Source: Thermodesulfobium sp. 4217-1
GTDB taxonomy: Bacteria > Thermodesulfobiota > Thermodesulfobiia > Thermodesulfobiales > Thermodesulfobiaceae
Direction of reading: 5' to 3'
Length of the DNA stretch: 64,000 nt
Assembly (NCBI RefSeq): GCF_039822205.1
Contig: NZ_JBAGBW010000006.1
Coordinates: forward strand, 20,998-84,997
The notes beneath the pieces were generated by a model. The model was not told where the DNA came from. It did not search any database and was given only the letters and a program-made list of their open reading frames with translations. Each line of letters opens with the position of its first letter. The first letter of the stretch is position 1. Made by a program: the position numbers and the translations under genes. This document shows, one piece after another, positions 8,761-25,939 of this stretch.

Positions 8761-8770
8761 AAAATATTTG

Positions 8771-8820
8771 AAATAGGGCAGATTTTTGAAGACAAATTTC
8801 AAAAACTGCCCTATTTTTTA
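8771..8820. terminator. Bidirectional hairpin terminator between convergent genes
   Basis: AAATAGGGCAG (8771-8781) pairs with CTGCCCTATTT (8806-8816), and TTTTTGAA/TTCAAAAA extends the stem inward around a GACAAAT loop. It is followed by a T run on the plus strand and preceded by A-rich sequence, so it can end transcripts from both sides. It overlaps the last codons of the HEPN pseudogene. Confidence 0.8.
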
Positions 8821-9166
8821 GCCTGAGAAAGAACCCAATTCTTTATTTCATCTGCATCCTTTATACAATAATCAAATTCTCTTTCAGTTATGTGTTTGCC
8901 GTCATAGTCAGCTTTATTTCTTAAACGCCTCAAGCTGTCTAAAAGACTGCCAATCCATTTTTCATCTGGTTTCTCAGATGTTTTCAAGGCTTTTATTACA
9001 ACGAAGTGCACGTTATTTTTTTATTTTCTTCGCATTTAATTAAGTCTCTGATTGTGCAAAACAAACCATAATATTTTCTGCTGATTGATGTTCGAATGTA
9101 TTCTTCATTTTTATTATTCTCTAATTCTTTTGCAAGATCCAAAAATTTCATCCAATCAAAGCTCAT
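8811..9166 (-). pseudogene. HEPN-domain protein, broken by a one-base frameshift
   Basis: Two frames together encode one small HEPN protein. The N-terminal frame (ATG at 9166) reads MSFDWMKFLDLAKELENN and SISRKYYGLF, then ends after a poly-A run. The C-terminal frame (8811-9011) supplies VHFVVIKALK and the HEPN hallmark LRRLRNKADYD. Adding one A to the A7 run (plus-strand T7 at 9016-9022) joins them into about 118 residues, normal for a stand-alone HEPN toxin-like protein. So this is a frameshifted gene, a homopolymer sequencing error, or a slippage site. The ATG overlaps the end of the preceding gene by 11 bases, and the hairpin terminator covers the 3' end. Confidence 0.8.
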
Positions 9167-9584
9167 AGGGTTCCACGGTAAAATTTAATCTATTTCCTAC
9201 CTTATCTATAATTTTAACAAACCAATCATAAAAAAACTTTTCTTTAAGCTCTATAACCTTATTAGCATCAAAATTTGACTTTATCACTATAAAAAGCTCT
9301 TCAAATTCTTCTTCAGGATCATTGTCTATTTCAAGAAAAACCTGAGAATTTCCAAAGATATCCCTAATCTCTTCTATCGAAGACTCAAGAACAGTAATTA
9401 GATCCTTATTATTTAAGAGAAATTTACAAACATTTTCATAATCTTCAAAATTATAAAAAAAATCTAAATTTTTTATCTTTCTTATAGTTGAAAGAAAATA
9501 AGAGTTTTCTTCTGTTTTGTTTGGTTGAAGAGATAACGAGCTAATCTTGCCAGATAAATTGTGTAACACAACCGAGGCTTCCAT
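9156..9584 (-). CDS. Unknown protein, middle gene of the TIGR04255-HEPN operon
   Basis: An intact 142-residue reading frame if it begins at ATG 9584, which has AGGAGG (9596-9591) seven bases upstream and overlaps the preceding stop codon in a TAATG arrangement. The first half is helical and polar (VLHNLSGKISS). The second half has an acidic FLEIDNDPEEEFEELF followed by IVIKSNFDANKVIELKEKFF, then YDWFVKIIDK, which is the pattern of a small alpha/beta domain. I do not recognise a family. Its tight coupling on both sides to a TIGR04255-like gene and a HEPN gene suggests it is the partner or antidote component of that unit; that is inference only. Confidence 0.65.
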   Translation of the reverse strand: MEASVVLHNLSGKISSLSLQPNKTEENSYFLSTIRKIKNLDFFYNFEDYENVCKFLLNNKDLITVLESSIEEIRDIFGNSQVFLEIDNDPEEEFEELFIVIKSNFDANKVIELKEKFFYDWFVKIIDKVGNRLNFTVEPYEL

Positions 9585-10330
9585 TAACTTCCTCCTATCC
9601 AAAAGAGATTTCTCGATTTATCTGTTATAATCGACTCAAAAGTATTTTCAATCTTATTGTGAGACTCTGCCAACCATCCCTCCAAGTCATCGAATGGAAC
9701 AAATTCTTGAGATACCATAGAATAACCAATATCAAGGAGTAATGAACTGAAATTCGGTCTGTCTGAAATAGAAGAGTATAAAGCCACAGTTAAACTCTCT
9801 TTACCGTCTTTAAATGGAAATTCTACTTTTGATATGAAAGAATTATTATTTTTAGCTAATTCTTCTGGAATAAAAGGATAGTATCTAAGGTAATTTTTTA
9901 ATTTTATATTTTGTTTCTTACTAAATTCAAGAAGATTAATGTATCTCAAAGAAATTCTTTTAAAATCTTTTGGCTTTGCTATCTACCTATAAACACTAAA
10001 ATTATCCATTATCATTAACTTAAAGTTTTCCCAACCAATATATGGCTTTAATTGATTTAATATAAAAAGATTAGGAATAGTTTGAATTAGAGCAGTTCTA
10101 TCCCTATTGAAAAATTGATTTCTGACAATAGGTTCGACTCTTTGTACGACACCATTCTTTAATGGCTCAACGTTGAAACTTAATTCAATTTTCTGTTGTT
10201 TACCAGGAAAGTTTCCGTTTATTTTCTCATAAATTAATTCAGGCATGGCATCATCCCATATTTCACCAGGAACAAACTGAAATTCGCACACAACTTCTAC
10301 AATTGGTGGATTCTCATATCTCTTCTTCAT
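9584..10330 (-). pseudogene. TIGR04255-family protein, interrupted by an in-frame TAG
   Basis: The protein begins MKKRYENPPIVEVVCEF and continues to NHLKPY-like NQLKPYIGWENFK, then SVYR, then meets TAG at 9985-9983. The same frame then runs on without shift: IAKPKDFKR, the family motif LRYINLLEF, YYPFIPEEL, EFPFKDGKESL and a C-terminal ITDKSRNLFW. Together they give about 248-253 residues, the usual length for the sporadically distributed TIGR04255 family. A single C-to-T change turning CAG (Gln) into TAG would explain it. The ATG at 10330 is preferred over one five codons upstream because GGTAGGA lies just before it. It opens a three-gene operon with the unknown gene and the HEPN gene. Confidence 0.8.
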
Positions 10331-10400
10331 TGTTCCTACCTTCATAATTTATTTATATTTAACTCCATTTAGAAAAATTATAATACAACTTTTCTGAATT

Positions 10401-10430
10401 AAAAAACCCCGCAATTTTTACATTGCGGGG
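10401..10430 (-). terminator. Rho-independent terminator of the ACD operon
   Basis: CCCCGCAAT (10407-10415) and ATTGCGGGG (10422-10430) form a 9-bp stem with a 6-base loop. Read on the minus strand it is followed by TTTTTTAATT. It lies just past the stop of the BioD-like/DRTGG gene. Confidence 0.9.
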
Positions 10431-10447
10431 TAAAATGAAGATTTTAA

Positions 10448-25033: not shown

Positions 25034-25430
25034 TAATATTGACCTCCTTAATATCTTCTCTACAAAGAAAGCAAACTGGCTTCATTGGAAGCCACAACAA
25101 AAATTCCTGTCTTATTAGCTCCGAAAGATCGATCTCTTTGCCTTGAATTGCAAACTGGTCCTCGTTTGGCTTACCCTTTACAAATTCATCATTTAGATCA
25201 AACTCAATCTTTTGCTTAAACTTATTAAGACATATAGCACACTCCATCAAAAGCGTTCCCCTAACTTTGCCCTGTACCAATATTGCCTTTCCTACATTTG
25301 TAAGAGTTAAGTCAAAATCGATTGGCGAGCAAAATTCAAGAGAAGGCTCCTCGAACTGAGCAACTTCCTGAGTCTTAATTCTAACACTACTTCCGACGTC
25401 ATCAAGGATATGCGAGACATCTACTCTCAT
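25005..25430 (-). CDS. yceD: YceD/DUF177 family protein
   Basis: A 141-residue DUF177 protein, the family that nearly always precedes rpmF and is linked to 23S rRNA accumulation. ECAICLNKF and a C-terminal pair in FLCRED carry the conserved cysteines, and LSELIRQEFLLWLPMKPVC is the characteristic helix. It is the first gene of the fatty-acid operon and sits just behind a consensus promoter. Confidence 0.9.
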   Translation of the reverse strand: MRVDVSHILDDVGSSVRIKTQEVAQFEEPSLEFCSPIDFDLTLTNVGKAILVQGKVRGTLLMECAICLNKFKQKIEFDLNDEFVKGKPNEDQFAIQGKEIDLSELIRQEFLLWLPMKPVCFLCREDIKEVNISGSTKKASF

Positions 25431-25457
25431 CTAAAACCCTACCTTTCAAACGAAGCT

Positions 25458-25486
25458 ATTATAAAAATCCTTTTGAAAATTGTCAA
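25458..25486 (-). promoter_or_regulatory. Consensus sigma-70 promoter of the yceD-rpmF-plsX-fab operon
   Basis: On the minus strand TTGACA (25486-25481) and TATAAT (25463-25458) are separated by exactly 17 bases, matching the sigma-70 consensus at all twelve positions. The start of yceD is about 28 bases downstream of the -10 box. No recognisable FapR- or FabT-type operator was seen. Confidence 0.88.
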
Positions 25487-25489
25487 ACA

Positions 25490-25939
25490 TCAAAAATCGA
25501 AATCTACAATATCTCCTATACAAACCTTGCCACTTTTGAGAACCTTGCAAAACACGCCCTCTTTTAACATCTGATTATGAGGTCTATTAAACTGCAAATA
25601 AGAAGATTTTTCAAGGTGATCCTTTGGACCCTTTCCAATCTCTACAATTTGCAATACAGCCTCTTTGCCAATCTTAAATTTTGTACCAACGCTCATATTA
25701 TAAACTTCAATTCCATCAATAGTAATATTATCAGCATAATCGCCAGGTTTCAAGTTTAGCTCTTTAGCGATACCCTTTGAATAAGTCGAAAGGCTCGATA
25801 CGCTAACCTGTCTCTGAGAAACGCCAGCATGCGCATCTCCCATAACGCCATAATTTTCAACAAGCTCTATGCACTCCACACTGTTTTTTGGAATGCCCCT
25901 ATCGTCCGACAGAGCACAGTTTACAATTTTGCCTTTCAA
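25490..25939 (-). CDS. MOSC-domain protein
   Basis: A 149-residue stand-alone MOSC domain (molybdenum cofactor sulfurase C-terminal type). Landmarks are GVMGDAHAGVSQRQVSV, LKPGDYADNITIDG and the C-terminal GVFCKVLKSGKVCIGD. Such proteins are thought to move sulfur or handle molybdenum/pterin cofactors. GGAGG precedes the ATG. It is separate from the fab operon, whose promoter lies just past its stop. Confidence 0.88.
   Translation of the reverse strand: MKGKIVNCALSDDRGIPKNSVECIELVENYGVMGDAHAGVSQRQVSVSSLSTYSKGIAKELNLKPGDYADNITIDGIEVYNMSVGTKFKIGKEAVLQIVEIGKGPKDHLEKSSYLQFNRPHNQMLKEGVFCKVLKSGKVCIGDIVDFDF

What the first reader, a model, noticed from the sequence alone, without database searches (positions are those of the whole stretch)
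8811..10330. Three-gene TIGR04255/unknown/HEPN operon, possible unrecognised defence or toxin-antitoxin unit
The three frames overlap or touch (TAATG, 11-base overlap), are isolated between convergent and divergent housekeeping genes with terminators on both sides, and carry a HEPN domain, a fold common in RNase toxins and abortive-infection systems. The middle protein is unlike families I know. The TIGR04255 family is described as sporadically distributed, which suits an accessory module.
Basis: partly seen in the sequence, partly recalled or inferred. Interest (0 to 1): 0.72.

Follow-up and report, generated by a model that had tools for sequence, protein, structure and literature searches.

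The report
Decayed copy of swappable toxin-type operon
This stretch is a small inserted three-gene cassette, broken in this genome, whose intact relatives across many bacteria and archaea look like toxin-antitoxin or antiviral units in which one shared protein is repeatedly re-paired with different RNA-cutting partners.

Summary
The TIGR04255 frame has an in-frame TAG and the HEPN frame a -1 shift at an A7 run, so this copy is probably dead. The module itself is genuine. Anchoring on TIGR04255 alone, 24 of 36 loci with downstream sequence carry the 142-aa protein's family ('MID') and then HEPN, in that order, across many phyla. Three same-genus genomes have an empty site here, so it is a 1.63-kb insertion between housekeeping genes. 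TIGR04255 behaves as a hub: close relatives of the HEPN type carry PIN nucleases instead, and effector type changes at least 18 times on the TIGR04255 tree. MID-HEPN also occurs alone, including on plasmids. In several phyla the triad lies inside type III restriction-modification operons, between mod and res. Most likely function: toxin-antitoxin/abortive-infection module with HEPN as RNase toxin, MID as neutraliser, TIGR04255 as shared regulator or sensor. Roles are inferred; nothing was tested at the bench. The HEPN lacks R-x4-6-H but has the alternative residues of AF0298-like HEPN-T proteins. No paper in the open PMC library names TIGR04255.

The parts
8766..10396 (-). Inserted cassette (about 1.63 kb) absent from the same site in three same-genus genomes; carries the three genes, their upstream region and a bidirectional terminator
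   Evidence: in G002 (flanks 96-97% identical), G001 and G003 the two flanking genes are only 59-100 bp apart; empty site CCAAAAAATTAAAAAATTAAAAAACCCCGC
9584..10345 (-). TIGR04255 family gene, interrupted by TAG at 9985-9983 (start ATG at 10330 or 10345)
   Evidence: NCBIfam 114.8 bits, cut-off 30, with TAG read as X
9983..9985 (-). in-frame TAG stop in TIGR04255; relatives have E, N or D at this position
9156..9584 (-). MID protein, 142 aa, open frame, no known family; AlphaFold2 pLDDT 88
8811..9166 (-). HEPN-T gene (PF05168), -1 frameshift; N-half ends at 8998, C-half with RNKADYD in the other frame
9016..9022 (-). A7 run where the HEPN frame shifts by -1
8771..8817 (.). Bidirectional hairpin terminator between the cassette and the MDH-like gene
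   Evidence: both strands, z -6.5 and -7.3
10406..10431 (-). Terminator of the upstream flanking gene; present at the empty site of G002 too

Best explanation
The feature is a decayed copy of a horizontally inserted, conserved three-gene cassette: TIGR04255, then MID, then HEPN. In intact relatives I propose it is a toxin-antitoxin/abortive-infection-type unit. The HEPN-T protein would be the RNA-targeting toxin, acting through the alternative residue set (R...DY plus an upstream His) seen in AF0298-like HEPN-T proteins. MID, encoded just 5' of it and found with it even without TIGR04255, would be its dedicated neutraliser. TIGR04255 would be a shared regulator or sensor hub that is re-paired in evolution with other pairs (middle protein + PIN nuclease, and others), and the triad is sometimes wired into type III restriction operons so that it fires when infection or failed restriction is sensed. 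Shown: gene order and overlaps, insertion/empty site, breakage, partner exchange, restriction-operon and plasmid contexts. Inferred: toxicity, neutralisation, sensing and loss of function here.
For: Co-occurrence: anchored only on TIGR04255, 24 of 36 GTDB loci with downstream DNA carry MID then HEPN on the same strand, mostly with overlapping or touching frames, two of them in methanogenic archaea (L131, L137); 10 triads in the 366-genome sample. MID-HEPN pairs without TIGR04255: L011, L102, L103, L105 and a 4-nt-overlapping pair on Gloeothece plasmids. Accessory insertion: empty site in G001-G003. Partner exchange: L109, L110 and L112, whose TIGR04255 is about 50% identical to the HEPN type and nested inside it on the tree, carry a different middle protein and a PIN domain; effector labels need 18 changes on the tree (shuffled mean 41.5; minimum 4); 9 of 75 other downstream genes are PIN, one is SocA/Panacea. 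Defence context: mod-TIGR04255-MID-HEPN-res in L107, L116, L129; res only in L111 and mod only in L127 where contigs end; mod/res around MID-HEPN with MNT-HEPN and a TIR-like gene in L102; Thermus brockianus plasmid pTB1 triad beside VapC and about 5 kb from an argonaute gene. HEPN residues: R...DY in 22 of 22, near-invariant upstream His, as described for AF0298-like HEPN-T (PMC3710099).
Against: Many triads, this one included, sit among housekeeping genes, not defence islands. PADLOC has no model for TIGR04255 or MID. No classic R-x4-6-H motif. No toxicity or phage data exist. The TIGR04255 and MID folds give no functional relative. This copy has two broken genes.
Confidence: 0.6

Rival explanations
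1. A restriction-guard: the triad is an accessory of type III restriction-modification that kills or arrests the cell when the restriction enzyme is blocked (PrrC-like logic); stand-alone copies are relics or act with other sensors.
For: mod-triad-res operons in several phyla, mostly with frames overlapping or 2-6 nt apart; the HEPN survey PMC3710099 reports HEPN-T clustering with R-M operons and proposes PrrC-like release.
Against: Only about 5-6 of some 35-40 HEPN-type loci; most, including the window, have no mod or res nearby; the same TIGR04255 family works with other partners elsewhere.
Confidence: 0.2
2. A degenerate HEPN-MNT toxin-antitoxin pair: MID is a catalytically dead minimal nucleotidyltransferase acting as a binding antitoxin.
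For: Same gene order (partner 5' of HEPN); VIA-align puts putative nucleotidyltransferase 1ylq third (Z 6.8, 73 residues, 3.0 A).
Against: Z is within the background of unrelated rows (PrgH 7.0, KH domains 6.7); no GSx..DxD motif in 24 MID sequences; profile comparison with MNTs finds nothing (probability 0.2%).
Confidence: 0.12
3. A non-conflict regulatory or RNA-handling operon that happens to be patchily distributed.
For: Frequent housekeeping surroundings; HEPN without the classic catalytic motif.
Against: Empty sites between near-identical genomes, partner exchange with PIN nucleases, plasmid and restriction-operon copies, overlap-coupled frames.
Confidence: 0.12
4. The stop and frameshift are sequencing or assembly errors and the operon here is intact.
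For: The shift is at an A7 run; a draft genome of 69 contigs; MID is fully open.
Against: 37 window genes match G001 in one frame and only one other has internal stops; the flank aligns to G002 over 1304 bp without gaps; a TAG substitution is not a typical homopolymer error.
Confidence: 0.15

Closest known systems
HEPN-MNT (MntA-HepT) toxin-antitoxin; PADLOC PDC-M05
   Same: HEPN gene placed 3' of a small partner in an overlapping operon; HEPN weakly matches PDC-M05B (E 3.7e-8 for the window) and HEPN_IX in 15 of 23 relatives; residues around RNxxDY
   Different: Partner is MID, with no nucleotidyltransferase motif, plus a third gene TIGR04255; R-x4-6-H absent
Panacea (PanA) hyperpromiscuous antitoxin network (PMC10440598)
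   Same: One conserved protein re-paired with many unrelated toxin-like domains; one TIGR04255 operon itself contains a SocA/Panacea gene
   Different: TIGR04255 is an unrelated protein and usually comes with a second, effector-specific small protein; direct neutralisation is untested
AF0298-like HEPN-T (PF05168, PDB 2hsb) as in PMC3710099
   Same: Retained R, D in place of H, second conserved H between helices 2 and 3; reported clustering with R-M operons
   Different: The TIGR04255 and MID partners were not met in the passages read of that survey
VapBC-type PIN toxin-antitoxin
   Same: PIN domain in the third position of many TIGR04255 operons
   Different: Three genes with TIGR04255 first; the HEPN version replaces PIN
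PrrC/PrrI-type nuclease embedded in a restriction operon
   Same: Predicted RNase unit inside a restriction-modification operon
   Different: Type III not type I, three separate small genes, no ABC ATPase

Membership tests
NCBIfam TIGR04255 | Score above curated cut-off (30 bits) over the full profile | tested here: met
   114.8 bits, profile 1-251 of 252, with the TAG read as X; 1 stop inside
HEPN-T (PF05168), AF0298-like | Score above Pfam cut-off | tested here: met
   26.2 bits vs 22, after reading across the frameshift
HEPN-T (PF05168), AF0298-like | R kept, D in place of the motif H, second conserved H further N-terminal | tested here: met
   R...DY in 22 of 22 relatives, upstream H near-invariant; window RNKADYD and NVHF
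Classical HEPN RNase | R-x4-6-H motif | tested here: not met
   Motif position reads R-x3-D-Y in the window and all 22 relatives
HEPN-MNT toxin-antitoxin / PDC-M05 | Partner is a nucleotidyltransferase with GSx..DxD | tested here: not met
   No such motif in 24 MID sequences; hhalign probability 0.2%; no Pfam hit over cut-off
HEPN-MNT toxin-antitoxin / PDC-M05 | Partner has the nucleotidyltransferase fold | tested here: inconclusive
   1ylq Z 6.8 among unrelated rows of the same Z
Type II-like toxin-antitoxin module | Small overlapping operon, partner gene 5' of toxin gene, patchy accessory distribution | tested here: met
Type II-like toxin-antitoxin module | Toxicity of one product and neutralisation by the other | not testable with these tools
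   needs expression assays
Promiscuous hub (Panacea-like) | Same protein paired with unrelated effectors, with exchange on the tree | tested here: met
   HEPN, PIN and at least two other unnamed families; 18 changes, shuffled mean 41.5
Type III restriction-modification accessory | mod and res directly flank the triad | tested here: not met
   Not in the window (flanks are an MDH-like and a phosphotransacetylase-like/DRTGG-type gene); met in L107, L116, L129

The most novel reading that the evidence does not exclude
TIGR04255 is an undescribed hub of a combinatorial conflict network. One fold serves as shared sensor or antitoxin for several effector pairs (MID-HEPN, small protein-PIN, and families of unknown activity), the HEPN version is repeatedly built into type III restriction operons, and at least one large phage carries a lone TIGR04255 that could act as trigger or counter-defence.
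Probability: 0.4. Interest if true: 0.8.

Novelty: new variant of a known kind. Interest (0 to 1): 0.6.

Why it matters
If right, a protein family that NCBI names only as 'sporadically distributed' becomes a hub of toxin-antitoxin/antiviral modules, comparable to Panacea, and several families of unknown function next to it become testable effectors. The mod-triad-res operons would give a concrete case of a predicted RNase unit wired into type III restriction. The empty site in a 97%-identical genome shows such a cassette moving without a recognisable mobile element and then decaying.

Tried and rejected
Single-protein scan of genome contigs with MID found no relatives; the TIGR04255 alignment A2 was used instead. 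A nine-row alignment was too diverse for the pattern scan. Sequence search for solved structures gave nothing for TIGR04255 and only chance-level rows for MID. MID fold search: best Z 7.0, PrgH, KH domains and one nucleotidyltransferase all tied, so no fold claim. TIGR04255 fold search: guanidino kinases Z up to 9.3 (174 residues, 3.5 A) and TBP or SAM decarboxylase by Foldseek (TM below 0.45); recorded as a possible shared arrangement, no function taken from it. MID versus the PIN-type middle protein: no relation. Programmed frameshifting at A7 rejected because the HEPN relatives read are single continuous frames without such a site. The phage collection has no match to the L009 TIGR04255 protein. 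PMC searches for TIGR04255 gave 0 papers; subscription papers and preprints were not searched.

Full report
What is there. On the minus strand, three frames run from 10345 to 8811. The first is a TIGR04255 family protein (NCBIfam 114.8 bits), the second a 142-aa protein without any family (here 'MID'), the third a HEPN domain (Pfam 26.2 bits). However, the TIGR04255 frame contains an in-frame TAG at 9985-9983, where relatives have E, N or D, and the HEPN frame shifts by -1 at an A7 run (9022-9016), so its conserved C-half with RNKADYD is in another frame. Compared with the complete same-genus genome G001, 37 other window genes are whole and one is interrupted. The simplest reading is that this copy is decaying.

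It is an insertion. In three same-genus genomes the MDH-like gene and the neighbouring gene on the other side are 59-100 bp apart and nothing lies between. The closest, G002, is 96-97% identical on both flanks, and the alignment places the insert at about 8766-10396 in an A/T-rich spot, with its own bidirectional terminator. The genome has no second TIGR04255 or PF05168 HEPN match, though it has two ordinary MNT-HEPN pairs on the same contig.

The module is conserved. Of 366 sampled genomes, 45 have TIGR04255 and 13 have MID; ten loci of that sample, the window included, carry the triad in order. An independent scan of GTDB contigs with TIGR04255 alone gave 41 loci, 36 of them with downstream DNA; 24 of these have MID then HEPN on the same strand. 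They come from Caldisericota, WOR-3, Nitrospirota, Chloroflexota, Acidobacteriota, Bacteroidota, methanogenic archaea and others. MID-HEPN also exists without TIGR04255 in L011, L102, L103, L105 and as a pair overlapping by 4 nt on two Gloeothece plasmids. So MID-HEPN is the core pair and TIGR04255 the added or exchangeable partner.

TIGR04255 is shared by other operons. Elsewhere it is followed by different pairs. Nine of 75 non-MID/HEPN downstream genes are PIN domains, one is SocA/Panacea, two are DUF7689, and two recurrent families have no name (conserved QGD..SCDL, and HANI..GWP). L109, L110 and L112 are the clearest swap: their TIGR04255 proteins are about 50% identical to the HEPN type and sit inside it on the tree, yet they carry a 118-119 aa protein plus PIN. 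On a maximum-likelihood tree of 78 TIGR04255 proteins the effector label needs at least 18 changes (minimum 4, shuffled mean 41.5): labels are clustered but repeatedly exchanged. Some deep branches are weak and the label 'other' is a mixture.

Context. In L107, L116 and L129 the triad lies between a type III mod gene and a res gene, mostly with frames overlapping or a few bases apart (in L116 res starts about 290 nt after HEPN). L111 shows res right after HEPN and L127 mod overlapping TIGR04255, each at a contig end. L102 has MNT, HEPN, a TIR-like gene, MID and HEPN between mod and res. The Thermus brockianus plasmid pTB1 triad stands next to VapC and about 5 kb from an argonaute gene. But many other loci, like the window, are among ordinary genes, so the defence link is recurrent, not general.

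How it may work. The HEPN protein is of the AF0298-like HEPN-T kind: R kept, D where the classical His would be, and a second conserved His upstream, in the relatives checked (described in PMC3710099, which also notes clustering with R-M operons). That survey suggests such proteins may still be RNases and cites toxicity even without the motif. Gene order (partner first) and MID's strict linkage suggest MID neutralises HEPN. TIGR04255 could help both or sense the trigger. AlphaFold2 models of MID (pLDDT 88) and TIGR04255 (pLDDT 93) are confident, but neither has a match that tells function. MID is not a nucleotidyltransferase by motif or profile.

Limits. No activity was measured. E-values for HMMs built here come from small seed sets. 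Neighbour statistics rest on simple ORF calls. The PMC library has no paper naming TIGR04255, which is not proof that nobody has described it.

Noticed in passing
L166:6001-6738 (IMG/VR contig IMGVR_UViG_3300005573_000054, 159 kb): A lone TIGR04255 homologue (36% identical to L009's) about 2.2 kb from a tail/baseplate-type gene and next to an ATPase gene on a large viral contig, with no MID, HEPN or PIN beside it; a candidate phage-borne trigger or counter-defence.
   Followed up: partly
window 25143-25571: An ORF orthologous to an intact 143-aa ORF of G001 has two internal stops here.
   Followed up: no
same contig as the window, C6:1760 and C6:4145 (L150, L151): Two MNT-HEPN pairs with R-x4-H-x-Y-like motifs (RNIAIHDY, RNELAHEY) about 17-19 kb before the window start.
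   Followed up: partly
L102:1256-7947: A mod ... res operon holding MNT, HEPN, a TIR-like gene, MID and a second HEPN between mod and res.
   Followed up: partly
L060, L063, L065, L069, L084, L087, L091, L092, L082: A recurrent unnamed family downstream of TIGR04255 with conserved QGD and SCDL-like motifs and RLRLLPPYREHLSQAFARFFMRVGLPVDIP at its C-terminus in some; no Pfam match for the members scanned.
   Followed up: partly
L062, L064, L076, L094, L095, L100, L121: A second recurrent unnamed family downstream of TIGR04255 (pattern HANI..GWP); only one weak DUF7886 match.
   Followed up: partly
PDB 9xbd and 9xbc: Solved HEPN proteins matching this HEPN family; the two sequences differ at the Tyr of RNRSDYD (Y versus F), suggesting that this residue is under study.
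   Followed up: no
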